Assembly: GCA_026393795.1 (NCBI GenBank)
Contig: JAPKZL010000233.1
Coordinates: forward strand, 1-36,612
Direction: 5' to 3'
DNA: 36,612 nt
From: Candidatus Aminicenantes bacterium
GTDB taxonomy: Bacteria; Acidobacteriota; Aminicenantia; UBA2199
Made by a program: the position numbers and the translations under genes. A model generated the notes under the pieces. It was not told the DNA's origin. It worked only from the letters and a program-made list of their open reading frames with translations, and did no database searches. Positions 756 to 11,395 of this stretch are shown here, in pieces. How positions within the stretch are numbered: position 1 is the first letter of the stretch; every line of letters starts with the position of its first letter.

Positions 756-2078
756 TTATAATCCCGAAACGACGATGTTCTCGAATACCAGGCTGGGGAA
801 GCGCCGGGACGAGTAAAGAAACGGATCGTTGGCCACTTCGATCAGCTTGTTCCAGAATTTCAGATGATTGTCGGCGATATTCATTTCAGCCACGGCTTGC
901 ACCGGCTCTCCCTTTGCAAACAGCTGGCCGCTGATCCCGATCGAGGTGTCGCCGGTGGTCGGGTTGGAGTTGCCGCCGATGAATCCAGTGATCAGGATGC
1001 CCCGGCCCAGGTCCTTCATGATCTCCTTGACCGAGCGCGGCCCGGGGGGGATGACCAGATTGGCCGCGCTGCCCGATGTCGGCTCCACGCCCAGTTTGCG
1101 GCTGTAATACCAGTCGATGAAGAATTCCTTCAGGATGCCGGCTTCGATCATGGTCCTTTTTTTGGCGCTGAAGCCGTCGCCGTCAAACAGGCGGCTGCCC
1201 AATCCGCCTTTGATGAACGGATCGTCGATCAAGGTGAGGTGCTTGCTGGCGACCGGCTGGCCCTTCTTGTCGGCCAGGAAAGACCGTTTCTGCTGGATGC
1301 TGCGGCCGAACATGGCGGCCATGAGCCCGCCGAAGATGCGGCCGACGTTCTGGTTTTCGACGATCACCGGCAGGGTTTCGGTCTTGATTTTTTTGGCGCC
1401 CAGCATGGCCAGCGTCCGCTGCGCCGCCTCAATCCCGATCGCCTCGGTGCCGGGCAGGTCCTTGCGCGCGACGGCCACGGCATAGCTGTAACCGTTCGGC
1501 CGGCGATCGCCCTCGTCCTTGGCCGTCATCTCGGCGAAGACAGAATAGGTGGTCCCCTGCGCATAGCCAAAGAAACCATTGCTGGTCATCTGCAGCGATT
1601 CCTGGGCCCCGTCTTGCTCTTGGGCGGTGACCGAAACGACTTTGTCTCCGCCTTGCCGCAGGCAGGCTTTCTCCAGCGACTTGACCATTTCGTGCCTGGC
1701 TTCGGGAGAAAAAGATTTGTAGGCGGGATCGACCAGCTCCAGGTCGACTTCGGCCCGGCCTTCGTAGTATGTGGGGTCGGGGAGGGTGCGCAGCGGGTCC
1801 TCGGCCAGAAGCTTGGTGGCCGCGACGGCGTTGGCGATGAAATCCTGGAGGGCCCCTTTTCTGAGGTCCGACGTGCTCTGCAGCGAGAAGCGGCCGTTGG
1901 CATAAATTTCGATGTTCAGCGCCTTGGTGGAAGCTTCCTTGATGTTCTCGGGCCGGCGGTCGCGGTAGCTGATTTCAACCGAGCGGTTGCTGTCGAGATT
2001 GACCTTGCAGTGATCGGCGCCGGCCGATTTCGTGGCCTTGATCACCCAGGCGACCAAATCTTGCATTTCCTTGTTCAT
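756..2078 (-). CDS. tldE: TldE/PmbA-type subunit of TldD-TldE protease
   Basis: A 440-residue PmbA/TldE-family protein. In E. coli TldD and TldE form a heterodimeric metalloprotease that degrades unfolded peptides and matures microcin B17; TldE lacks the zinc motif, and none is seen here. Family-like stretches include the N-terminal region with SVEISYRD and the C-terminal TGDTSIGISGQLF. The ATG at 2078 is chosen because GAGGAG lies 7 bases upstream; an in-frame ATG at 2084 is too close to that site, and starts further upstream would run into tldD. It follows tldD after 17 bases, so the two are co-transcribed. No signal peptide is visible on this subunit, unlike its partner. Confidence 0.9.
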   Translation of the reverse strand: MNKEMQDLVAWVIKATKSAGADHCKVNLDSNRSVEISYRDRRPENIKEASTKALNIEIYANGRFSLQSTSDLRKGALQDFIANAVAATKLLAEDPLRTLPDPTYYEGRAEVDLELVDPAYKSFSPEARHEMVKSLEKACLRQGGDKVVSVTAQEQDGAQESLQMTSNGFFGYAQGTTYSVFAEMTAKDEGDRRPNGYSYAVAVARKDLPGTEAIGIEAAQRTLAMLGAKKIKTETLPVIVENQNVGRIFGGLMAAMFGRSIQQKRSFLADKKGQPVASKHLTLIDDPFIKGGLGSRLFDGDGFSAKKRTMIEAGILKEFFIDWYYSRKLGVEPTSGSAANLVIPPGPRSVKEIMKDLGRGILITGFIGGNSNPTTGDTSIGISGQLFAKGEPVQAVAEMNIADNHLKFWNKLIEVANDPFLYSSRRFPSLVFENIVVSGL

Positions 2079-2095
2079 GCTCATTCTCCTCATTT

Positions 2096-3628
2096 TCACG
2101 ATTTGACGCCGCCCACGGTCAATGACTTGACCAGACATGACGGCTGCCCGAAGCCGACCGGGACGCTCTGGCCGCCCTTGCCGCAGGCGCCGGTTCCGCC
2201 CTGGTGCAATTCGAGGTCGTTGCCCACCATGGTGATGTCCTGAAGCATTTTCGGGCCGTTGCCCATGATATTGATATCTTTAATGGTGGCGGTCAGTTTG
2301 CCGTTTTCGATCATCCGCCCTTGCGACACATAGAAAGCGAAGTCGCCTTCGCCGATGTTGACCTGGCCGTTGCTGACATTCTGGACATAAATGCCTTTCT
2401 GGGCGCCGCGGATGATGTCCTCGGCCGAAGCCGCGCCGGCCAGCATGATCGTGTTGCGCATGCGCGGCTGCACATAGTGCTGGTAGCTCTCGCGGCGCCC
2501 GTTGCCGGTCGGCTTCAGCTTGTAGAAGCGGGCCGATATCTTGTCGTGCATGTAGCTCTTCAAGATGCCGTTTTCGACCAGCACCGTCCGCTGCCCGGGG
2601 GTTCCCTCATCGTCGAAATTGATGGAACCGAGCAGGTTGGGGATGGTTCCGTCGTCGATGATGGTAATGAACGGTTCGGCGACTTTTTTGCCGATCATCG
2701 TGCAATAGGTCGACGTCTTTTTACGGTTGAAATCGGCTTCCATACCGTGGCCGATCGCTTCATGCAGCAGGATCGCGGTCACGCCGGGAGCGAAAACCAC
2801 CGGCATTTCGCCGGCGGGCGGCTGGACGGCATCGAAAAGCAGCAGGGCGTCATGGACGGCCTTGGCGGCGATCTCGTCGATCGCGTTCTGGTTAAAGTAG
2901 GAAAAATCCCGGCGTCCGCCCAGATTCCATCCCGCCTGTTCGCGCCGGCCGTCCTTTTCCGCCACGACCAGCGCCGTCAGATAATCCCTGGGCTGGAGAT
3001 CTTCGGCCTTGCCGCCTTGTGAATCGACCACCAGAATCCGCTTCTGCTGGTCGTGAAAATTGGCGGTGACCTTGACCACCAGCGGCGAAAGGGCGAAACA
3101 TTTCTCGTTGAGCTTCTGCACCAGCGGCAGTTTCGCTTCCAGCGCCACCGCGGTCAGCAATTTCTCCAGGGGATAATAATTCTTGGTTTCCAGCCACGAG
3201 AACTTGCCGGCCGGCTTTGTGCGCACGCCGCTGGCGATGGTGGCGGCGATGGCGGCGGCATTGAGCATGGATTTTTCGCTCAACTCCTGGGTGAATCCAT
3301 AGCCGACCTGGTCGCCTTTCACGGTGCGGATGCCCACGCCGAGCGCCACGTCGCTGAAAGCGCGGTTGACTTGGCCGTCTTCCAGGATGATCCAATTGCC
3401 GATGGTGTGCTCGAAGTAAAGGTCGGCGAAATCGCCGCCCCGGGCCAGGGCCGCGGCCAGCACCTTCCGGCACAATGCATCGCTGATGCCGAACTCCCGC
3501 TCAAAATAGCCCGGTTTTTCGGCCGCCAGCAACTGCGGCCAGCCTCCGGAAAGGATGGGCACGGCCGCGCCCATGGCGGCCACTCCGGCGGTGGTTTTCA
3601 AAAAAGAACGTCTGGTCATTTCGGTCAT
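2096..3628 (-). CDS. tldD: TldD-type zinc metalloprotease with Tat signal
   Basis: A 510-residue TldD-family protein. The zinc motif HEAIGHGME is at about residue 288 (HExxxH form, as in E. coli TldD), followed by a typical C-terminal half (NFDDEGTPGQRTVLVENG; ends LTVGGVKS). The N-terminus reads TRRSFLKTTAG followed by a hydrophobic stretch to about residue 36, a classic twin-arginine signal, so the folded protein is probably exported. The E. coli enzyme is cytoplasmic, which makes this form unusual. The start at 3628 has GAGGAGG five bases upstream. It is the first gene of the tldD-tldE pair. Family assignment is firm; substrate and export are inferred. Confidence 0.92.
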   Translation of the reverse strand: MTEMTRRSFLKTTAGVAAMGAAVPILSGGWPQLLAAEKPGYFEREFGISDALCRKVLAAALARGGDFADLYFEHTIGNWIILEDGQVNRAFSDVALGVGIRTVKGDQVGYGFTQELSEKSMLNAAAIAATIASGVRTKPAGKFSWLETKNYYPLEKLLTAVALEAKLPLVQKLNEKCFALSPLVVKVTANFHDQQKRILVVDSQGGKAEDLQPRDYLTALVVAEKDGRREQAGWNLGGRRDFSYFNQNAIDEIAAKAVHDALLLFDAVQPPAGEMPVVFAPGVTAILLHEAIGHGMEADFNRKKTSTYCTMIGKKVAEPFITIIDDGTIPNLLGSINFDDEGTPGQRTVLVENGILKSYMHDKISARFYKLKPTGNGRRESYQHYVQPRMRNTIMLAGAASAEDIIRGAQKGIYVQNVSNGQVNIGEGDFAFYVSQGRMIENGKLTATIKDINIMGNGPKMLQDITMVGNDLELHQGGTGACGKGGQSVPVGFGQPSCLVKSLTVGGVKS

Positions 3629-3725: not shown

Positions 3726-4916
3726 TCATTTGATCCCCTGCAGGCCGGCCAGCGCTTTTTCAGCCATCCGGTTTTGAAAGGCGGCCAGTTCCGCTCCGCT
3801 CCGCGGCATTTTTAAAAATTCATCGGTCAGAGCGAATATTTCCCTTTCCGTTTCCAGCAGCCGCGGCAGGAATCCGGTCCCTTGACGGTTGTCCAGCCGG
3901 GTCACGTCCAGGTAAGCGCGGCGGTCGGTTTCCGGGTAAGGCCGGGCCTTTTTTTGCAGCCGTTTCGCCTCCAGGTAGATGGCCGCTTTTTCGCCCTGTT
4001 GCAGCGGGGCGGTCGACGCGCCGGCCTCCACCCACATCGGCACGGCGATGGAAAACAGCGGTTCGCCCAGCATGACCCAGAGGGTGGCCAGGGAGTTTTC
4101 CCGGCCCGGCATCCGGCCGCAGACGATGATGGCCGCCGACGTGGAATCGCGGTCGATGGTGTCGCGGGTGGCGATCCAGAACGGCTGCTTGGCGGAAATT
4201 GCCTTGAACTGCGGCCAGGCGGGCTGGCGGACCAGGGCATGCCCGGTATCGCGGCTGAACTGGCTGAGGATTTGCTGATGGGAGAGCGGCAGGGGAAGGA
4301 CTTGGCGGAACAGCTGGCTGGCCCTTTCGAAGCGCAGGTAGCCGGCCCCGGCTTCCGCTTCGCCGCTACGGGCAAAATTGGTGTTGATGATGTATTTTTC
4401 CGGGAAATCGGCCGTCCGGAATTTCTTGTAGGCATGGTTGGAAACCTCGAACAGAGCCGTTTCGCCGGCGGCATCCAGCACCCCGAAGTTGGCCAGGCTG
4501 CCCAGGCTGGGCCCCAGGTTTTCCTGGATGTAGCTTTCGAAGTCGGCCACGCTGGCGCAGCGGCGCAGGGCGTCGGCCATGATCGTCCCTTCCATATCCT
4601 TGACCTCGCCGCCCTTTTCGGGAAGGTTATAGGCCACCGAGTTGAAAATGGCGAATCCGGCCGAGTTCAAGCCCGCGTAGACCCAGCGCCCGGAGCGGTC
4701 TTCGGCGTTGACCAGCGCCAGGTAGGAAAAGGGATTTTCCTTGACGAAGATGATCTTGTTGCTCAGGAAATCGGTATCGCGGTTTTTCCAAAGCAGCGGC
4801 CGGCCGGTAGCGGAAGCGCTGGAGCCGATGACGGCGGTCGTGCAGGCCAGATCAGGCAGCGGCAGCCCGATTGCCGCGATCATGGCCACGGACAGGAAGA
4901 AGAGCCATTTTTTCAT
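3726..4916 (-). CDS. Secreted Ntn-hydrolase, C45/linear amide hydrolase-like
   Basis: A 396-residue protein with a hydrophobic signal peptide (about residues 1-24) that ends directly before Cys25 in LACTTAVIG. The following stretch (CTTAVIGSSASATGRPLLWKNRDTD) matches the N-terminal-nucleophile hydrolases of clan PB: peptidase C45 acyl-CoA:6-APA acyltransferases, bile-salt hydrolases and C69 dipeptidases. In these enzymes processing exposes the Cys as nucleophile and the downstream Arg/Asp pair supports it. Cleavage here would expose Cys25. Likely activity is hydrolysis of linear amide bonds outside the cytoplasm; the substrate is unknown. It lies upstream of tldDE but has its own promoter (4938-4966) and a GAGG site before the ATG. 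A lipoprotein reading of the Cys is less likely because the residues before it do not form a good lipobox. Confidence 0.75.
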   Translation of the reverse strand: MKKWLFFLSVAMIAAIGLPLPDLACTTAVIGSSASATGRPLLWKNRDTDFLSNKIIFVKENPFSYLALVNAEDRSGRWVYAGLNSAGFAIFNSVAYNLPEKGGEVKDMEGTIMADALRRCASVADFESYIQENLGPSLGSLANFGVLDAAGETALFEVSNHAYKKFRTADFPEKYIINTNFARSGEAEAGAGYLRFERASQLFRQVLPLPLSHQQILSQFSRDTGHALVRQPAWPQFKAISAKQPFWIATRDTIDRDSTSAAIIVCGRMPGRENSLATLWVMLGEPLFSIAVPMWVEAGASTAPLQQGEKAAIYLEAKRLQKKARPYPETDRRAYLDVTRLDNRQGTGFLPRLLETEREIFALTDEFLKMPRSGAELAAFQNRMAEKALAGLQGIK

Positions 4917-5009: not shown

Positions 5010-5040
5010 GGCCGTACCCGGGCAGGAGCGGGCGTTCAAA

Positions 5041-5772
5041 ATGAGTTCTCCATCCCAGTGGCCGGTTATGCGCATCTTCACTCGCTGGTTCGGCGCCGCC
5101 AACAATGCCGCCGAGGGGATCCTGCAGGCCGCCAAGACCCAGCGTCATCTGCAGTTCCACCTGCTGACCGCGTGCGCCGTCCTGCTCGGCTGCTTTGTCA
5201 TCGGACTGGACAAGCTTGAGTTCGCGGCCATCGCCCTGATTACCATCGTGGTCATCGTCGCCGAGTTGTTCAATTCAGCGCTGGAGGCGGCGGTGGACCT
5301 GGCCAGCCCGGATTTCAAACCGCTGGCCCGCATCGCCAAGGACATTGCGGCCGGAGCGGTGCTGATCAGCGCCGTCGGCGCCCTGGTCATCGGCACCATG
5401 ATCATCGGGCCGCACCTGGTCAAGATCTGGCGGGGGTTTTATCGCATCCCGCGCCACACGGCCGGTAATATCGCCGTTCTGGCCCTGATCCTGATTATGG
5501 AGATCGTGATCTTCATCAAGGCCTATGGCGGGGTCGGCCATCCGCTGCGCGGCGGTTTTCCCAGCGGCCATACCGCTTCGGCGTTCTCGCTCTGGATTTC
5601 CTTAATCCACATGACCGCCAATCCCTGGCTGATCGGCCTGGGACTGCTGGCGGCCGTTCTGGTCGCGGCCAGCCGCTTGCGCATGCAGGTCCATACCTTC
5701 CGCGATGTCTTTTTCGGCGCCCTGCTGGGTTCATCCATCACCCTGGTCCTTTTCAGGGTATTTTGGCACTGA
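5041..5772 (+). CDS. DgkA-type lipid kinase fused to PAP2 phosphatase
   Basis: One polypeptide with two membrane enzymes. The first half (to about residue 110) is a prokaryotic diacylglycerol/undecaprenol kinase: ELFNSALEAAVD and the following AKDIAAGAVLISA match the DgkA active-site helices. The second half is a PAP2-family phosphatase with the GGFPSGHTASAF motif (C2) and SR-x5-H-x3-D in SRLRMQVHTFRD (C3); the canonical C1 motif K-x6-RP is not obvious. About six membrane helices are visible. The start at 5041 is a choice: GGAG lies 12 bases upstream and the -10 element precedes it; 5068 is an alternative. It heads an operon ending in murB, so a role in making and recycling undecaprenyl phosphate for cell-wall synthesis is the favoured inference; diacylglycerol or lipid A metabolism is possible. 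Confidence 0.85.
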   Translation: MSSPSQWPVMRIFTRWFGAANNAAEGILQAAKTQRHLQFHLLTACAVLLGCFVIGLDKLEFAAIALITIVVIVAELFNSALEAAVDLASPDFKPLARIAKDIAAGAVLISAVGALVIGTMIIGPHLVKIWRGFYRIPRHTAGNIAVLALILIMEIVIFIKAYGGVGHPLRGGFPSGHTASAFSLWISLIHMTANPWLIGLGLLAAVLVAASRLRMQVHTFRDVFFGALLGSSITLVLFRVFWH

Positions 5773-5773
5773 C

Positions 5774-6934
5774 ATGTCCATAAGCAAAACCAGGCTGTTG
5801 GCTTTTGGCGCGCTGCTGGCCGCGTTGCTTGCCTGCGCCGCTCCGCGCCTGGCCCCGGTGGCGGAGATCAGCCCGCCGCTGATCCAGGAAGAGGTGTTCG
5901 CCTGGAGCGGGCAGGTTGCCGGCCAGGCGTTGTTTTCCTGCCGGGAGGGGATCGGCTGGGTCGACGCGGCCGGGCAAATCGTCACCTGGAGTCCCGAAAA
6001 AAGAGCCGCCGGCACTACCTGGCCCCTGCCGTTCGCGGTCAGCGATCCTCCCTTCCGCCAGGGCGATTTCCTGGCGCTGAAAAGCCAGGCGGAAGATCAA
6101 TGGCTGGTTTTTGACCTGGCCAGGATGGAAACCCGGTTTGCCCTGCGCGACCTGCGGGCCAAACAGATCCTGGGCGTCGATGGCGATCATCTGGTGTATG
6201 TGGATGGGGAAAACCTGGTGGTGCACAGCCGGCAGGAGCCGGCCGGACTCTTTCGCTGGCCGGCCGTTGAAAAGAAATTTTTCAAACTGGGCCAGAACCT
6301 GGAACGGCAGCCGTTCATTTCCGGTGGCGCCATCATTATCGCCCCGGCCGACAACAATGTCTTGCGCGTGAGCAACAGCGGCAGCGTGCGCTGGTGGCTG
6401 GCACTCCATTCCATCCCGCAATTCGATCTCCTGCCCATGGCCGACCATCTGGCCGCCTTCTTAATGAACCAGGAAATCAAATTCATCAACCTCCGCCGCC
6501 AGCAGGAAACGGTCTTTAAAATTAATGGCCGCCCAACCGGCATGCCTCTGGCCTATCAGCACGACCTGTATTTTTTTCTGGCAGCCGAAAAAATGCAGAA
6601 ACTGCAGCGCGTCGGCAACCAGGTTGGCATTGAATTGACTCTGACTCCCGACAAAGCACTGTTGCTGGGCAACCCCATCACGTTTTCTATCCTGACCAAC
6701 AATCTGCTCAAACCCCGTCTCCTGGCCACAATCCGCGATGAGGCCGGGCAAACGGTTTTAACTAAAAAAATCGAGCTGGCCAAGAGCGCTCTGCTGGTGT
6801 GGATACCCGTGCAGGCGGGAATTTATCGAATGCATGTGAGCGCTGCGGCGCTGAACCGTATTGAAGAGAAAGAGATTTCTTTTCAGGTTTTCGATCCGCG
6901 TGAAATTTTCCTGAATTTGTACCTGTTTTTTTAA
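5774..6934 (+). CDS. Putative lipoprotein, propeller-like with C-terminal Ig-like part
   Basis: A 386-residue protein starting one base after the stop of the kinase/phosphatase gene, so probably translationally coupled. The N-terminal helix ends in a lipobox (ALLAC, Cys21), giving a lipid-anchored envelope protein. The middle has repeated short strand-rich units with Trp and Asp-Gly turns (for example ILGVDGDHLVYVDGENLVV), suggestive of a beta-propeller such as the PQQ or WD type. The last 90 or so residues (ITFSILTNNLLKPRLLATIRD onward) look like an Ig-like sandwich. No catalytic motif is seen and no family was recognised with certainty. Its operon partners point to an envelope function. The start was moved from upstream in-frame ATGs because those lie inside the preceding gene. 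Confidence 0.75.
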   Translation: MSISKTRLLAFGALLAALLACAAPRLAPVAEISPPLIQEEVFAWSGQVAGQALFSCREGIGWVDAAGQIVTWSPEKRAAGTTWPLPFAVSDPPFRQGDFLALKSQAEDQWLVFDLARMETRFALRDLRAKQILGVDGDHLVYVDGENLVVHSRQEPAGLFRWPAVEKKFFKLGQNLERQPFISGGAIIIAPADNNVLRVSNSGSVRWWLALHSIPQFDLLPMADHLAAFLMNQEIKFINLRRQQETVFKINGRPTGMPLAYQHDLYFFLAAEKMQKLQRVGNQVGIELTLTPDKALLLGNPITFSILTNNLLKPRLLATIRDEAGQTVLTKKIELAKSALLVWIPVQAGIYRMHVSAAALNRIEEKEISFQVFDPREIFLNLYLFF

Positions 6935-6951: not shown

Positions 6952-7446
6952 ATGAAAAAGCTACGCCTGCTTCTGCTGGCCGTCGCGGTCTTGGGGTTTG
7001 CCGCCCCGGCCCAGGAAAGAAACGTGTGCATCCTGGAAACCGCCAAGGGCACGCTGGCTTTTGAAATGTTTCCCGAAGTGGCGCCGCGCACGGTGGCCCG
7101 GATCAGCGAACTGATCGCCGCCGGTTTTTTCGACGGCCTTGTATTCCATCGCGTGGTGGCCGATTTCGTAGTCCAGGCCGGCGATCCGACCGGCACGGGC
7201 GAAGGCGGCTCGGGCCAGACCATCCCCGCCGAATTTTCGCATCTCCATTATATCCGCGGCAGCGTGGGCATGGCCCGCAACGATGATATCCATTCCAACG
7301 ACAGCCAGTTTTTCATTTGCATCAGCGATCAACCGCATCTGGACGGCAAATACACCCTGTTCGGGCAGGTGATCCGCGGCGCGGAGGTTTTGGATCGCAT
7401 CCGCCAGGGCGACAAGATCCTGTCCATGCGCCTGGAAAAAAAGTAA
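6952..7446 (+). CDS. Secreted cyclophilin-type peptidyl-prolyl isomerase
   Basis: A 164-residue protein with a signal peptide (about 1-20, ending APAQ) followed by a compact bacterial cyclophilin domain. Family hallmarks are FHRV (catalytic Arg), FVVQAGDPTGTGEGGSG, GMARND, SQFFI and LDGKYTLFGQV. The cyclosporin-contacting Trp of human CypA is replaced by His (PHLDGK), as in many bacterial enzymes. It catalyses cis-trans isomerisation of prolyl bonds, here in the periplasm or at the cell surface. A GGAGG ribosome-binding site precedes the ATG, and the stop codon directly abuts the ATG of murB. Confidence 0.93.
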   Translation: MKKLRLLLLAVAVLGFAAPAQERNVCILETAKGTLAFEMFPEVAPRTVARISELIAAGFFDGLVFHRVVADFVVQAGDPTGTGEGGSGQTIPAEFSHLHYIRGSVGMARNDDIHSNDSQFFICISDQPHLDGKYTLFGQVIRGAEVLDRIRQGDKILSMRLEKK

Positions 7447-8391
7447 ATGTTCGCCCCCCTGGCTTCCTGGCTCCGCGGCCAAGGCATCGTTTGCCGGGAA
7501 AACGCCGCCATCGGCCCTTTCCTCTATTTCAAGATCGGCGGCAAGGTCGGATTGCTCGTCGTTTGCACGTCGCCGGCCCAGATGGCTGCCAGCCTGCAGA
7601 AGATCATCGCCGCGGGGATTCCCCACCTGGTCATCGGCGGCGGCTCCAACATCGCTTTCGCGGACGACCTGACCGAGGCCGTGGCGCTGGTTTACCAGAG
7701 TGCGCTGAAGCCGTCGGCGGCCGCGCGCCTTGTGGACGGCCAGGCGCTGCAGGTCGACGGCGGCGTTAAAAACCAGGTTTTCCTCTCCTGGTGCGCCGCA
7801 GGCGGCGCCGGCGGCTTTGAGTTTTTGTCCGGCATCCCCGGCACCATGGGCGGGGCGGCGGCGGTCAACGCCGGCGCTTTCGCGAGTTCCATGGCCGATG
7901 TCGTGCTGGGCGCCGATATCCTGGACAGTCGCGGCACCGTGGCGGCGATTGACGCCGACCGTTTTGCCTTCGGTTACCGCGAATCGCGCTTCAAGTTTGG
8001 CACGGAAACGATCCTGTCCCTGCGCCTGAAATACAGCCCGGCCGAGCCGGCGGCCATCGCCGCCGGAATCAAGAAAAACCTGGATTACCGGCTGAGCCAC
8101 CATCCTTCCTACCGCACCCCTTCGGCCGGCTGTTTTTTCAAGAACCCCTCCCTGGGTTCAGGCAGGCGTTCGGCCGGAAAACTCATCGAGGCGTGCGGTT
8201 TGAAGGGCGTAACCTGCGGCGGCCTTGCCGTGGCTGTTGAGCACGGCAATTTTTTGCTCAACCGCGGCCATGCTTCCTTCGCCGACCTGCAATGCTTGGA
8301 AAACGAAATCAAAAAGACCGTGGCAACGCGCACCGGGGTCGATCTGGAGCGGGAAGTGATTTACGTGGCGGCGGACGGAAAAAAATACTGA
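7447..8391 (+). CDS. murB: UDP-N-acetylenolpyruvoylglucosamine reductase (MurB)
   Basis: A 314-residue FAD enzyme that reduces UDP-GlcNAc-enolpyruvate to UDP-MurNAc in peptidoglycan synthesis, in the cytoplasm. Visible hallmarks are the FAD-binding GGGSN (residues 64-68), SGIPGTMGGAAAVNAGAF (about 128-145), the catalytic Arg in GYRES (R178), the proton-donor Ser in SAGCFFKNP (S226), and a C-terminal Glu in LEREV. The short form with GYRES and SAGCFFKNP corresponds to type II MurB. The ATG follows the stop codon of the cyclophilin gene with no gap, so translation is coupled. It is the last gene of the plus-strand envelope operon. Confidence 0.96.
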   Translation: MFAPLASWLRGQGIVCRENAAIGPFLYFKIGGKVGLLVVCTSPAQMAASLQKIIAAGIPHLVIGGGSNIAFADDLTEAVALVYQSALKPSAAARLVDGQALQVDGGVKNQVFLSWCAAGGAGGFEFLSGIPGTMGGAAAVNAGAFASSMADVVLGADILDSRGTVAAIDADRFAFGYRESRFKFGTETILSLRLKYSPAEPAAIAAGIKKNLDYRLSHHPSYRTPSAGCFFKNPSLGSGRRSAGKLIEACGLKGVTCGGLAVAVEHGNFLLNRGHASFADLQCLENEIKKTVATRTGVDLEREVIYVAADGKKY

Positions 8392-8468: not shown

Positions 8469-9098
8469 TTATTGAAGCTTTCTGGCAGAGCGCGTGGCCA
8501 TGGGCAGTTTGCCGCTGCCGGCGCTGCCGCTCGTGCGGGTCGCCGTCCAGGTGCCGGTGTCGACGACGGCGTTGTTATTAAGGTACTGCACCGTTCCGCT
8601 CATTTTGTCTTTTTCGTCAAACGCGCCGTCGAATACCCATTTGTATGTATAACCGGCGATAGAGAATTCGAAGTGGACGTTCTTGCCGTCGACGGTGTAG
8701 GTGCCCGTATCGTCGAATTCTGCCAGTGTCAAGGTGCCCGATGCCTTGTCGCCGCTGAAGATGATGGTCGTGGCTCCCTCCGTCCAGATGGTATCGGTTT
8801 CGCTCCAGGTGCCGACGATGTCGTAACTGGTCTTCAAGACCACCAGGAACAGGACGGCGGCCACGGCGACGACACCCACCCCGATCAGCACGATGGGCAG
8901 GATGCTCTTTTTCTTGCCCACAACCCCGCTGTTGCCCTCTTCCTCGATGAAGCGCGGCCCTTGTTCCGTGTTGGCCGCACTGATTTGCTCGGTCGTGTTG
9001 GCGGCGGCCGCTTCGCAGGGCATGGTGGAGACCTGCAACAGTCCCATGAATGTCAACGTGACCAGCAGCGCGACCCATTTTTGTTGCTTTTTGATCAT
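8469..9098 (-). CDS. Small exported membrane protein, tandem family copy 1
   Basis: A 209-residue protein of a family repeated in this cluster. Order of parts: signal peptide (about 1-32, IKKQQKW then a hydrophobic stretch ending EAAAA); a Glu/Gly-rich linker containing EQGPRFIEEEGNSG; a Lys cluster (KKKSILP) leading into one membrane helix (about 70-93); then a strand-rich domain beginning YDIVGTWS with repeated G-T-W / SGT / GTYTVDGKNV / MSGT / GTWTATR turns, resembling small lipocalin- or avidin-like barrels. The function is not recognised. The ATG at 9098 is preferred over TTG at 9104 because GGAGG lies 9 bases before it. It has its own promoter (9132-9160) and terminator. Confidence 0.75.
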   Translation of the reverse strand: MIKKQQKWVALLVTLTFMGLLQVSTMPCEAAAANTTEQISAANTEQGPRFIEEEGNSGVVGKKKSILPIVLIGVGVVAVAAVLFLVVLKTSYDIVGTWSETDTIWTEGATTIIFSGDKASGTLTLAEFDDTGTYTVDGKNVHFEFSIAGYTYKWVFDGAFDEKDKMSGTVQYLNNNAVVDTGTWTATRTSGSAGSGKLPMATRSARKLQ

Positions 9099-9131
9099 GA
9101 TCAATTGCCTCCTTTAAGCATTCGTACTACG

Positions 9132-9160
9132 TATATACAGAGTTCTTTCCCATATGTCAA
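9132..9160 (-). promoter_or_regulatory. Sigma-70 promoter of tandem family copy 1
   Basis: Minus strand TTGACA (9160-9155), 17-base spacer, TATATA (9137-9132). The leader of about 27 bases carries a GGAGG site. Confidence 0.8.
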
Positions 9161-9203
9161 TGCTTTCGCTCTGGCGCTGGCTATTATGCCCAATGGGTCA
9201 AAA

Positions 9204-9234
9204 AAAAGAGCCTTCCCTTGGGAAAGCTCTTTTC
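9204..9234 (-). terminator. Terminator between family copies 1 and 2
   Basis: AAAGAGCCTTCCC pairs with GGGAAAGCTCTTT with a single mismatch around a TT loop. On the minus strand the hairpin is followed by seven or more T residues. It lies 51 bases after the stop codon of copy 2 (9285). The plus side also has a T-rich flank, so it may work both ways. Confidence 0.75.
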
Positions 9235-9284
9235 TTTGTCTGGCAGCGAATTAAATTTACTAAACCTGTGTTACCTACACCCGT

Positions 9285-9956
9285 TCAGCGCGGTTGTCTC
9301 CGGATTGAATCCCTTTGCGGAACTTGCGAGGCGATCTGCGACACGGCGGCGGTGGTCGTGCTGCGCGTGGCCGTCCACGAACCGGTATCGGTGATCCCGG
9401 ACGGTTTGTTCATGTGCCAGGTACCGCTGAGCGTATTCTTGTCGGTGAAGCTGCCCTCGTAATGGTATTCGTAATTGTTCGGATTTGCAGCCCAATACTG
9501 AATAAAATCGACCGCTTTGTCGTTTACCGTATAGCTGCCCGTATCGGGATCGTCGCCGCCCCACGTGTCGAAGTCGACGCGAACCGTTCCGCTGGTCTTG
9601 CTGCCGGTGAATGTCAAGTAGCGGGTCACGGGAGAATATCCGCTTTCTGTTCGCTGCTGAGTCCATTCGCCCGTGATGTCGTAACTGGATTTCAAAACCA
9701 CCAGGAACAGGACGGCGGCCACGGCGACGACGCCCACGCCGATCAGGACGATGGGCAGGATGCTTTTTTTCTTGCCCACGAACCCGCTGTCCCCCTCTTC
9801 CTCGATGTAGCGCGGCCCTTGCTCGGAGTTGGCCGCACTGATCTGCTCGGCCCTGTCGGCGGCGGCCGCTTCGCAGGGCATGGACGAAACCTGCAACAGC
9901 CCCATGAATGTCAAGGTGACCAGCAAAGCGATCCATTTTTGATGTTTTTTGATCAT
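9285..9956 (-). CDS. Small exported membrane protein, tandem family copy 2
   Basis: A 223-residue paralog of copy 1 with the same plan: signal peptide (IKKHQKWIALLVTLTFMGLL, ending EAAAA), linker with EQGPRYIEEEGDSG, KKKSILP and one membrane helix (ILPIVLIGVGVVAVAAVLFL), then a strand-rich domain (YDITGEWT, SGTVRVDF, GSYTVNDKAVDF, LSGTWHM, GSWTATR). The first 100 residues are nearly identical to copy 1, while the C-terminal domain has diverged strongly. This suggests a conserved delivery and anchor module with a variable displayed domain. The ATG at 9956 has GGAGG 10 bases upstream. It is transcribed from its own promoter (9989-10017). Function unknown. Confidence 0.75.
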   Translation of the reverse strand: MIKKHQKWIALLVTLTFMGLLQVSSMPCEAAAADRAEQISAANSEQGPRYIEEEGDSGFVGKKKSILPIVLIGVGVVAVAAVLFLVVLKSSYDITGEWTQQRTESGYSPVTRYLTFTGSKTSGTVRVDFDTWGGDDPDTGSYTVNDKAVDFIQYWAANPNNYEYHYEGSFTDKNTLSGTWHMNKPSGITDTGSWTATRSTTTAAVSQIASQVPQRDSIRRQPR

Positions 9957-9988
9957 GTCTACTATTCCTCCTTTAATTGGTTGCACAA

Positions 9989-10017
9989 TATATATAGACT
10001 TCTTTCCCGTTTGTCAA
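9989..10017 (-). promoter_or_regulatory. Sigma-70 promoter of tandem family copy 2
   Basis: Minus strand TTGACA (10017-10012), 17-base spacer, TATATA (9994-9989). The sequence from the -35 box into the spacer is almost the same as at copy 1, showing the promoter was duplicated with the gene. Confidence 0.8.
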
Positions 10018-10066
10018 TGCTTTTCGTCGCCGGCCAAAAATTCAGCCTTCGCGAAAGACGGCTGGA

Positions 10067-10579
10067 TCAGTCGATGTCCTGTTTTCCGTTCAGGGATTGG
10101 GTTAGCGGATGAACCGCAGCGGTCGTCGCGCGCGCGGCCGTCCAGGTGCCGGTGGTCGTGCCGTCGAATTTCAGATAGCTTCCGGACATGGCATCCTTGT
10201 CGGTAAAGGTGCCGGTGTACTTGGAGCCGCTCTCAAAGGTCCATTCCACGTTCTTGCCGTCGACCGTGTAGGTTCCATTGAGCAGATTTCCAGATTGTTC
10301 AGCCTCGAAAGTGCCGCTGGCTTTTTCGCCGCTAAAATTCACAGTGAACTCGTAAGTCGAACCTGCAGCGGTGCGGCTCACGTTCCAATCGCCGCGGATG
10401 GCATAGCTGGTTTTCAAAACCACCAGGACGGCGGCCACGGCGACGACGCCAACGCCGATGAGCACATAGGGCAGGATGCTCTTTTTCGGAGCCGGCATGG
10501 GCTTGGGACTCACAGCTTCAAAAACGTCACCTTCTCCCTGCGCTGGCCGAACAACAATACCAGCACTTTTACCGGGCAA
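10067..10579 (-). pseudogene. Rearranged tandem family copy 3, signal peptide lost
   Basis: From base 10498 down, this frame encodes the family's membrane helix (KKSILPYVLIGVG) and strand-rich domain (YAIRGDWN, SGTFEAEQ, GTYTVDGKNVEWTF, MSGSY, GTWTAAR). The normal signal peptide and linker are absent. Instead the frame runs upstream into a 79-base segment (10518-10596) that is an inverted copy of part of copy 4, so the apparent N-terminus is a nonsense reading of the wrong strand. No ribosome-binding site or promoter is visible before the possible ATGs at 10579 or 10498. The domain itself has no stops or frameshifts, so the damage looks recent, or it could be an assembly join. A short 140-residue protein starting at 10498 cannot be excluded. 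Confidence 0.6.
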
Positions 10580-10596
10580 TTCGATACAAAGGATAC
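10518..10596. repeat. 79-bp perfect inverted repeat, left arm
   Basis: This segment is the exact reverse complement of 10877-10955. In copy 4 (minus strand) the sequence encodes the stretch around VTFSLRWPNNNTSTFTGQF; here the same codons appear on the plus strand, upstream of an unrelated tail. The two arms enclose 280 bases. Confidence 0.95.
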
Positions 10597-10752
10597 GCTG
10601 GCTTTTCGCTTTGAATATCCGGGAGCAGCGCTACGGGACTGTGTGGATCAGGCTGCGGGTATTGCGCCTAATTTCTCCCTTGATAAATATTTTTTATACT
10701 GAGTAAGCAATATTCGTTTACGATGCTTGCCTGATTCTCTGCAGAGCCCTTT

Positions 10753-11367
10753 TTAACTATTGGGGCCCCTTTTTTTAGCCAAATTTTTCACTGTGGGCAA
10801 ACTGGCGCCGGAAGCGACGCGTACAGCTGTCCAATCCCCGTCCCAGTCTAAGCTTTCATGGAATCTGCCGCTCATGGTATCCTTTGTATCGAATTGCCCG
10901 GTAAAAGTGCTGGTATTGTTGTTCGGCCAGCGCAGGGAGAAGGTGACGTTTTTGACGTCGACGGTGTAGGTACCGGTCCCGCTCCAATTGTCGGTTGTGG
11001 TGCCGCTTTTTTTGTCGCCGGTAAATACAGGTGTAGTGTTCCACTCATAATCGTCATCGTCGTAGGTAATATGAACCGTCCAGGTGCCGCGGATGTCATA
11101 GCTGGTTTTTAAAACCACCAGGAACAGGACGGCGGCCACGGCGACGACGCCCACGCCGATCAACACGATGGGCAGAATGCTTTTTTTCTTGACCTGATTG
11201 CCGCTGTTGCCCTCTTCCTCGATGTAGCGCGGCCCCTGCTCGGAATTGGCCGCACCGATCTGCTCGGTCGTGCCGGCGGCAGCAACGGGCATGGTCGATA
11301 CCTGGAGCAGCCAGGCGAATGTCAATGTGACCAATAATGCGATCCATCTTTGTTGTTTTTTAGTCAT
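10753..11367 (-). CDS. Small exported membrane protein, tandem family copy 4
   Basis: A 204-residue family member: signal peptide (TKKQQRWIALLVTLTF... ending VAAAG), linker with EQGPRYIEEEGNSG, KKKSILP and one membrane helix, then the strand-rich domain (YDIRGTWT, SGTTTDNWSGTGTYTVDVKNV, TFTGQFDTKDTMSG, GDWTAVR). The ATG at 11367 has GGAGG 8 bases upstream and is preferred over the in-frame start at 11382. Its own promoter is at 11396-11424. Bases 10877-10955 of this gene form the right arm of the perfect inverted repeat. The arm ends just before the codons for MSGRFHESLDW, so an inversion between the arms would replace its last 40 or so residues. Confidence 0.75.
   Translation of the reverse strand: MTKKQQRWIALLVTLTFAWLLQVSTMPVAAAGTTEQIGAANSEQGPRYIEEEGNSGNQVKKKSILPIVLIGVGVVAVAAVLFLVVLKTSYDIRGTWTVHITYDDDDYEWNTTPVFTGDKKSGTTTDNWSGTGTYTVDVKNVTFSLRWPNNNTSTFTGQFDTKDTMSGRFHESLDWDGDWTAVRVASGASLPTVKNLAKKRGPNS
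10877..10955. repeat. 79-bp perfect inverted repeat, right arm
   Basis: Exact reverse complement of 10518-10596. It lies inside the coding region of tandem family copy 4 and covers the second half of its strand-rich domain. All 79 bases were compared by eye and match. Confidence 0.95.
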
Positions 11368-11395
11368 ATATAATTCCTCCATTTTCTAGATCTAG

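What the first reader, a model, noticed from the sequence alone, without database searches (positions are those of the whole stretch)
5041..5772. Lipid kinase and lipid phosphatase in one polypeptide, leading to murB
DgkA-type kinase motifs and PAP2 motifs are both intact in one frame. A kinase that makes a phospholipid carrier and a phosphatase that removes phosphate from a pyrophosphate form could together raise the undecaprenyl-phosphate pool from both precursors. The operon end at murB supports a cell-wall role.
Basis: partly seen in the sequence, partly recalled or inferred. Interest (0 to 1): 0.55.

Follow-up and report, generated by a model that had tools for sequence, protein, structure and literature searches.

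The report
Lipid kinase fused to lipid phosphatase
This gene joins two membrane enzymes in one protein, and its helix count suggests that both working sites face the cell interior, where bacteria may need a still unidentified phosphatase for making their cell-wall carrier lipid.

Summary
Window 5041-5772 (+) is one intact 243-residue protein joining a DgkA/undecaprenol-kinase domain to a PAP2 phosphatase domain. The architecture is not unique: ten genomes of its class and one clostridial species carry it. It is the only DgkA-family match in the genome, which also holds one UppP/BacA and seven other PAP2 matches. The murB link is weak: five genus-mates have the same locus without the fusion, and two other genera have the fusion without murB beside it. 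The unexpected point is topology. The PAP2 half lacks the N-terminal part of ordinary PAP2 enzymes and follows a three-helix DgkA; helix parity, and less firmly charge counts, place the phosphatase site on the cytosolic face beside the kinase. BacA and PAP2 sites are described as periplasmic, and a cytosolic C55-PP phosphatase as unidentified (PMC12401180, passages). Best explanation: a bifunctional enzyme making undecaprenyl phosphate at the inner leaflet from undecaprenol and new C55-PP. Orientation and substrates are inferred; the structure model was poor (pLDDT 52). The gene is patchy, so it would be an accessory route.

The parts
5041..5772 (+). DgkA/UdpK-PAP2 fusion gene, 243 aa, ATG start, TGA stop at 5770-5772
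5024..5028 (+). probable ribosome-binding site AGGAG, also present before the gene in L011
   Evidence: read
5104..5406 (+). DAGK_prokar domain, TM1-TM3
5263..5298 (+). kinase motif E75-x-x-N78-S-A-x-E82-x-x-x-D86
5338..5343 (+). kinase residues K100-D101
5410..5460 (+). 17-residue linker 124-140 between TM3 and TM4; mean hydropathy -0.62 in the window
5461..5769 (+). PAP2 core (TM4-TM7; TM5 assigned by homology). Pfam match 5548-5766
5518..5520 (+). PAP2 motif C1 lysine K160
5560..5571 (+). PAP2 motif C2, PSGH (174-177)
5674..5706 (+). PAP2 motif C3, R212-x5-H218-x3-D222
5774..6934 (+). lipoprotein-like gene (signal judged by eye), no Pfam family at E 0.001, starts 1 base after the fusion's stop; relatives in 29 of 34 family genomes
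6952..7446 (+). cyclophilin-type peptidyl-prolyl isomerase
7447..8391 (+). murB, last gene of the run
3726..4916 (-). divergent upstream gene, C45/acyl-transferase-like (matches below the curated cut-offs); left edge of the fusion's slot

Best explanation
The protein is a bifunctional carrier-lipid enzyme of seven transmembrane helices. The N-terminal three-helix half is an undecaprenol kinase that uses cytosolic ATP to turn undecaprenol into undecaprenyl phosphate (C55-P). The C-terminal four-helix half is a PAP2 phosphatase placed upside down relative to ordinary PAP2 enzymes, because it follows three helices instead of its usual two. Its active site therefore faces the cytosol next to the kinase and removes one phosphate from newly made C55-PP. 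Both halves would deliver C55-P at the inner leaflet, where cell-wall precursor synthesis uses it. Shown: the fusion, the conserved catalytic residues, the missing N-terminal PAP2 part, the patchy distribution. Inferred: helix TM5, orientation, substrates, activity.
For: Both domains in one frame; catalytic residues invariant in 11 of 11 fusions. The full fusion profile aligns to LpxE (6ebu) only from LpxE residue 54 (55 with the PAP2 half alone). The linker between TM3 and TM4 is 17 residues long with mean hydropathy -0.81 to 0.76, against 1.99-2.57 for TM3 and 2.24-2.94 for TM4 in 11 of 11, too short and mostly too polar for another helix. With seven helices, Lys+Arg on the kinase face against the other face is 11-16 against 2-7 in 11 of 11. 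In the PAP2 half alone the active face has more in 9 of 11 and equal numbers in 2 of 11. Three clostridial-type DgkA proteins end just after a fourth helix aligned with TM4; Lys+Arg in the tail against the TM3-TM4 loop is 5 to 1 and 3 to 1 in two, 2 to 2 in the third (L127 counted by eye). Only DgkA-family match in the genome. A cytosolic C55-PP phosphatase is called unidentified or possible in PMC12401180, PMC4641660 and PMC5852022, passages.
Against: No activity data. AlphaFold model is low confidence (mean pLDDT 52.4; under 50 at 136-149 and 151-243; three-row alignment). Leaving out catalytic K160 and R212, the PAP2-half charge count favours the cytosolic side in only 6 of 11, ties in 2 and goes against it in 3, the window itself among these (3 against 5). 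TM5 is weakly hydrophobic (0.89-1.23) and was picked by the scan in 1 of 11; in L089 the best linker 15-mer (1.19) is as hydrophobic. The peak scan could not have found a 19-residue segment in a 17-residue linker, so its silence there proves nothing. The genome has BacA and other PAP2 genes, and close relatives lack the gene. A cytosolic C55-PP phosphatase would have to spare farnesyl-PP (PMC4641660). A published review favours flipping and outer-leaflet dephosphorylation (PMC12826051). The KX6RP Arg is not conserved and Glu28 is Gln.
Confidence: 0.38

Rival explanations
1. Same two activities, but the phosphatase faces the periplasm: the linker or the DgkA half breaks the simple helix count. 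The enzyme then recycles used C55-PP outside and salvages undecaprenol inside.
For: BacA and the PAP2 enzymes discussed in PMC12401180 and PMC4641660 have periplasmic sites. The window's linker carries four Lys/Arg, and without catalytic residues the PAP2-half balance of the window, L088 and L042 points this way.
Against: The linker is 17 residues, with mean hydropathy under 0.8 in 11 of 11, and has 0-2 Lys/Arg in 6 of 11. Two of three four-helix DgkA proteins have clearly more Lys/Arg after TM4 than before it.
Confidence: 0.23
2. Phospholipid version: a diacylglycerol kinase joined to a phosphatidate or phosphatidylglycerophosphate phosphatase, setting the diacylglycerol/phosphatidate balance rather than the C55-P pool.
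For: DgkA and PAP2 genes also accompany lipid-A-modifying mcr genes, whose product makes diacylglycerol (PMC7559476, passages). PgpB of E. coli acts in both pathways (PMC7413402, start of abstract in listings). Nearest solved PAP2 relative is LpxE.
Against: The kinase half matches Collinsella 42%, Phocaeicola 40%, Monoglobus 39%, Paenibacillus 35% and Listeria 33% better than Rahnella 27%, though Staphylococcus is only 29%. Glu34 is His, as in the Paenibacillus row and the two clostridial-type rows. The run of genes holds murB, no recognised phospholipid or lipid-A gene.
Confidence: 0.2
3. Antagonistic switch: the phosphatase strips C55-P to undecaprenol and the kinase restores it, so the protein stores or releases carrier lipid rather than producing it.
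For: If both sites are on one face they could share one substrate pool. The gene is absent from close relatives.
Against: Would waste ATP without regulation, and Pfam shows no further domain.
Confidence: 0.1
4. Only one half is active and the other is a structural remnant.
For: KX6RP Arg present in 1 of 11; C3 Asp is Glu in 2 of 11; Glu28 is Gln in 11 of 11. Four-helix DgkA proteins look like fusions that stop at the C1 lysine.
Against: Core catalytic residues of both halves are invariant in 11 of 11, down to 31% overall identity. Gln at position 28 also occurs in 6 of 15 unfused proteins tabulated.
Confidence: 0.09

Closest known systems
Acetoanaerobium noterae fusion protein (NZ_CP154629.1, L042 5007-5708)
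   Same: Same order DgkA then PAP2, 233 aa, 31% identity over 97% of the query; both Pfam domains over cut-off
   Different: Its neighbours look like PhoH, YbeY, cytidine deaminase, Era and RecO (names recalled from the translations; unfused dgkA genes are annotated beside ybeY), not murB; Glu in C3; VSGH for PSGH; no listed gene in the record stretch
Undecaprenol kinase DgkA of Bacillus subtilis
   Same: Undecaprenol to C55-P is its reported role (PMC5723303, passages); same family PF01219 (the control rings in Bacillus subtilis)
   Different: No PAP2 domain (recalled)
LpxE (6ebu), PgpB (5jwy, 4px7), YodM (5jki)
   Same: PAP2 motifs align with the fusion's second half; LpxE also dephosphorylates C55-PP (PMC6581854, start of abstract in listing)
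   Different: LpxE has 53-54 residues before the aligned core; the PgpB site is periplasmic (PMC5852022, passage)
DedA-PAP2 and DUF368-PAP2 fusions
   Same: PAP2 joined to another carrier-lipid protein (PMC9876793, passages)
   Different: Partner is a C55-P translocase, not a kinase
PAP2-MCR fusions
   Same: PAP2 joined to another membrane lipid enzyme in one frame (PMC8296556, passages)
   Different: PAP2 is N-terminal and the partner is a phosphoethanolamine transferase; helix number reported as conserved relative to the separate PAP2
dgkA followed by a separate PAP2-family gene in Parabacteroides distasonis (L129)
   Same: The two functions side by side, 4 bp apart
   Different: Separate proteins; its PAP2 has a signal-like N-terminus and PSMH instead of PSGH

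Membership tests
Prokaryotic DgkA / undecaprenol kinase (PF01219) | profile match over the curated cut-off | tested here: met
   100.2 bits against 22.3
Prokaryotic DgkA / undecaprenol kinase (PF01219) | core residues E69, N72, E76, D80, K94, D95 | tested here: met
   invariant in 11 of 11 fusions
Prokaryotic DgkA / undecaprenol kinase (PF01219) | metal ligand Glu28 | tested here: not met
   Gln in 11 of 11 fusions, but also in 6 of 15 unfused members tabulated, so it does not define the family
Prokaryotic DgkA / undecaprenol kinase (PF01219) | undecaprenol rather than diacylglycerol as substrate | not testable with these tools
   only similarity
PAP2 phosphatase (PF01569) | profile match over the curated cut-off | tested here: met
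   42.3 bits against 27.2; profile positions 48-126 of 130 only
PAP2 phosphatase (PF01569) | motifs KX6RP, PSGH, SRX5HX3D (recalled consensus) | tested here: inconclusive
   K, SGH, R and H invariant in 11 of 11; RP Arg in 1 of 11, Asp in 9 of 11, S of SR not conserved
PAP2 phosphatase (PF01569) | six-helix fold with two helices before the core (recalled) | tested here: not met
   LpxE aligns only from residue 54-55; DgkA stands where the N-terminal helices would be
C55-PP phosphatase with periplasmic site | active site outside the cytosol | tested here: inconclusive
   helix parity favours the cytosol, charge counts mostly so; no experiment and no confident model
C55-PP phosphatase with periplasmic site | hydrolysis of C55-PP | not testable with these tools
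   none

The most novel reading that the evidence does not exclude
This family is the first PAP2 phosphatase whose active site faces the cytosol, inverted by replacing its two N-terminal helices with a three-helix kinase. It is a cytosolic C55-PP phosphatase that, in the bacteria that have it, makes C55-P directly from newly synthesised C55-PP without the flip out and back.
Probability: 0.36. Interest if true: 0.82.

Novelty: new variant of a known kind. Interest (0 to 1): 0.5.

Why it matters
[quoted passage not shown] A natural fusion that ties a PAP2 site to a kinase that must face cytosolic ATP gives a direct, cheap test: map the topology and assay the enzyme. If the phosphatase faces inward, the rule that PAP2 sites face outward has an exception, and some bacteria have an inner-leaflet route to the carrier lipid. 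If it faces outward, the fusion shows how a three-helix DgkA can be joined without inverting its partner.

Tried and rejected
Rejected: murB linkage as functional evidence (see the full report).

Rejected: tandem dgkA-PAP2 in G096, G123 and G165. Their long matches ran through stops; in L015 (G096), the one read in full, no PAP2 gene follows dgkA. L016 and L017 were only screened by motif, which showed no PSGH frame.

Rejected: Gln at the Glu28 position as a sign of a dead kinase.

Led nowhere: five scans of viral contigs gave one DgkA on a viral contig and no further fusion. The AlphaFold job gave a low-confidence model, used only as weak support for helix positions; no fold search was made on it and the second job was not used. 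A Lys/Arg comparison between 9 fusions and 34 unfused PAP2 frames gave active-face means of 4.2 (24 residues) and 4.3 (27-70 residues), and opposite-face means of 2.6 and 5.0; it rests on crude loop boundaries and related sequences, so I do not lean on it. In one search my script mis-cut the helices of L127, so that row was counted by eye. The fusion tree did not resolve the genus (1 starred branch of 8), so gain versus loss is undecided.

Literature: nine searches. In the listings I saw (partial, 40 of 61, 15 of 18, 15 of 37) no title or abstract start described a DgkA-PAP2 fusion. I read passages only, of ten papers (PMC1079889, PMC5723303, PMC5852022, PMC4703834, PMC9876793, PMC12826051, PMC4641660, PMC7559476, PMC12401180, PMC8296556). 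The library lacks most subscription papers, and I recall that this domain combination appears in domain databases; that comes from no call.

Full report
What is there. The window is a whole 36,612-base contig of a draft genome (G000, 3.15 Mb, 323 contigs). Its one named relative found is a Candidatus Aminicenantes MAG, so I call its class Aminicenantia (inferred). Bases 5041-5772 encode one 243-residue protein with two Pfam domains over their cut-offs: DAGK_prokar (E 6.8e-29, profile 2-102 of 102) and PAP2 (E 7.8e-11, profile 48-126 of 130). Three genes follow closely on the same strand: a lipoprotein-like gene with no Pfam family (ATG at 5774, one base after the stop), a cyclophilin-type isomerase (6952-7446) and murB (7447-8391). 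The gene upstream is divergent (3726-4916). An operon is likely from the spacing; the promoter and terminator scan gave nothing I rely on.

Conservation. I aligned 11 fusions: eight from the genus (window; L011 standing for G203; G034, G083, G199, G201, G204, G205), G303 and G307 from other genera of the family, and Acetoanaerobium noterae. Identity to the window is 64-74% within the genus, 50% and 46% for G303 and G307, 31% for Acetoanaerobium. The DgkA core residues and PAP2 residues K160, SGH 175-177, R212 and H218 are invariant in 11 of 11. Residue roles in DgkA come from PMC4703834 (passages). Departures: Gln for Glu28 in 11 of 11 (also in 6 of 15 unfused DgkA proteins), the KX6RP Arg in only 1 of 11, Glu for the C3 Asp in 2 of 11. 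The motif filter missed four unfused proteins fetched for it (Collinsella, Phocaeicola, Parabacteroides, Monoglobus); three of these can be read and have Glu there, which would make it 6 of 18.

Distribution. In the class, 12 of 142 genomes have a DAGK_prokar match: ten fused, two in short frames (G308, G310). In the genus, 8 of 16 genomes have the full fusion and a ninth (G209) has its first 44 residues at a contig end; the other seven are 73-93% complete. In a phylum sample 51 of 199 genomes gave some match; three rows cover the whole query, all from this genus (G000, G034, G083), and the others cover parts. Of those others, the frames at the loci I screened held one domain each; rows without a locus, such as G033:C2 (106-237), were not read. 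The plasmid collection gave 10 records, one covering at least 80% of the query (Acetoanaerobium; its 2.63-Mb 'plasmid' record looks like a chromosome). The phage collection gave 8 records, none covering 80%.

Neighbourhood. Where the downstream side is readable in the genus (6 of 6 genomes) the fusion is followed by the lipoprotein-like gene; murB follows in 5 of 6, the sixth contig ending in the isomerase gene; G199 shows no isomerase match. In five fusion-lacking genomes the slot is plainly empty: in G208, G202, G138 and G207 the divergent acyltransferase-like gene is the neighbour of the lipoprotein-like gene with no fusion between, and in G200 the nucleotidyltransferase gene is (95% identical over 255 residues to that of G083, which has the fusion between the two). 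G210 has an unidentified 103-residue frame upstream and no DAGK match; G206 gave neither DAGK nor lipoprotein-like match. The lipoprotein-like gene is found in 29 of 34 family genomes. In G303 and G307 the fusion is followed by a bPH_2-domain gene and a BNR-repeat gene, and these short contigs (6.2 and 8.1 kb) show no match to the lipoprotein-like gene or murB. Both contigs begin just upstream of the fusion, so the upstream side is unknown. In the MurB tree, G083 and G199 (with fusion) sit in a clade (100/99) with six genomes without it. Several losses, or re-acquisition in the same slot, are both possible. The gene is therefore dispensable in this genus, and the murB link does not establish function.

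Other enzymes in the genome. One DAGK_prokar match (this gene), one BacA/UppP (E 5.1e-63), and eight PAP2 matches including this one, six over the cut-off. Periplasmic recycling of C55-PP thus has ordinary candidates; for the kinase only this gene was found. Completeness is listed as 96%, so absence elsewhere is not certain.

Topology. E. coli DgkA sites lie about the membrane/cytosol interface (PMC4703834, start of abstract) and it has three helical segments (PMC7559476, passage); that its N-terminus is inside and its C-terminus outside is recalled. That ordinary PAP2 enzymes have two helices before the catalytic core is recalled; the PgpB site is periplasmic (PMC5852022, passage). The full fusion profile aligns to LpxE from LpxE residue 54 on (E 6.7e-8; 55 and E 7e-9 with the PAP2 half), so the usual N-terminal part is missing. 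The hydropathy scan finds TM1-TM3, TM4 and two later segments near TM6 and TM7 in 11 of 11, and TM5, which begins at the PSGH motif, only in L090. TM5 (mean 0.89-1.23) is assigned by homology and by helix 177-191 of the low-confidence model. The face of motifs C1-C2 depends only on TM1-TM4, so on whether the 17-residue linker holds another crossing. Its mean hydropathy is -0.81 to 0.76, and it is too short for a helix plus turns, though in L089 its best 15-mer (1.19) equals TM5. Lys+Arg counts for the whole protein are 11-16 on the kinase face against 2-7. For the PAP2 half alone the active face has more in 9 of 11 and equal numbers in 2 (window, L088). Without two catalytic residues per protein it leads in 6 of 11, ties in 2 (L084, L085) and trails in 3 (window, L088, L042). 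Three clostridial-type DgkA proteins end after a helix that aligns with TM4; their tails outweigh the preceding loop in Lys+Arg in two (5 to 1, 3 to 1) and tie in one (2 to 2). Parity is the strong argument, charge a modest one; I put the cytosolic orientation at about 0.65.

Mechanism. If both sites face the cytosol, the simplest joint role is to supply C55-P at the inner leaflet: kinase from undecaprenol, phosphatase from newly made C55-PP. That C55-PP is made at the cytosolic side and that a phosphatase there, if any, is unidentified is stated in PMC12401180, PMC4641660 and PMC5852022. PMC12826051 gives flipping to the outer leaflet as the model, and why dephosphorylation is restricted to that leaflet as an open question. 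PMC4641660 warns that a cytosolic enzyme must not attack farnesyl-PP, a test this protein would have to pass. Because the gene is rare in its class and dispensable it would be an accessory route, not the general solution.

Novelty. The fusion exists in a public clostridial genome outside this lineage, so the architecture is not new. I saw no paper describing it in nine searches of an open-access library (some listings partial). PAP2 fusions to DedA and DUF368 (PMC9876793) and to MCR-like enzymes (PMC8296556) are in print. The inverted PAP2 reading is, as far as those searches show, not in print; it remains a prediction.

Noticed in passing
window 8469-11382, - strand; L011 9634-12729: Tandem family of roughly 170-233-residue paralogous proteins with a shared hydrophobic segment next to the murB run: four frames in the window (read) and five, the last cut, in L011; no function assigned.
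   Followed up: no
L043 1470-1934, L044 1538-2026, L127 238-705: DgkA proteins with a fourth helix ending in a Lys/Arg-containing tail; they look like fusions that stop at the PAP2 motif C1 lysine, so they may be precursors or remnants of the fusion.
   Followed up: partly
L129 2423-3362 (Parabacteroides distasonis): dgkA followed 4 bp later by a separate PAP2-family gene with a signal-like start.
   Followed up: partly
L019, L020, L021, L022, L026: In five genomes of one genus of the phylum, dgkA and a PAP2 gene stand tail to tail, overlapping in three of the five.
   Followed up: no
L082 2890-3336: A 112-kb viral contig encodes a DgkA-family protein with Gln at the Glu28 position.
   Followed up: no
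NZ_CP154629.1 (L042): A 2.63-Mb Acetoanaerobium record filed as a plasmid looks like a chromosome; only 4 features are listed for it.
   Followed up: no
window 756-3628, - strand: TldD/PmbA metalloprotease pair with a TAT-signal match on the TldD homologue, next to the locus.
   Followed up: no
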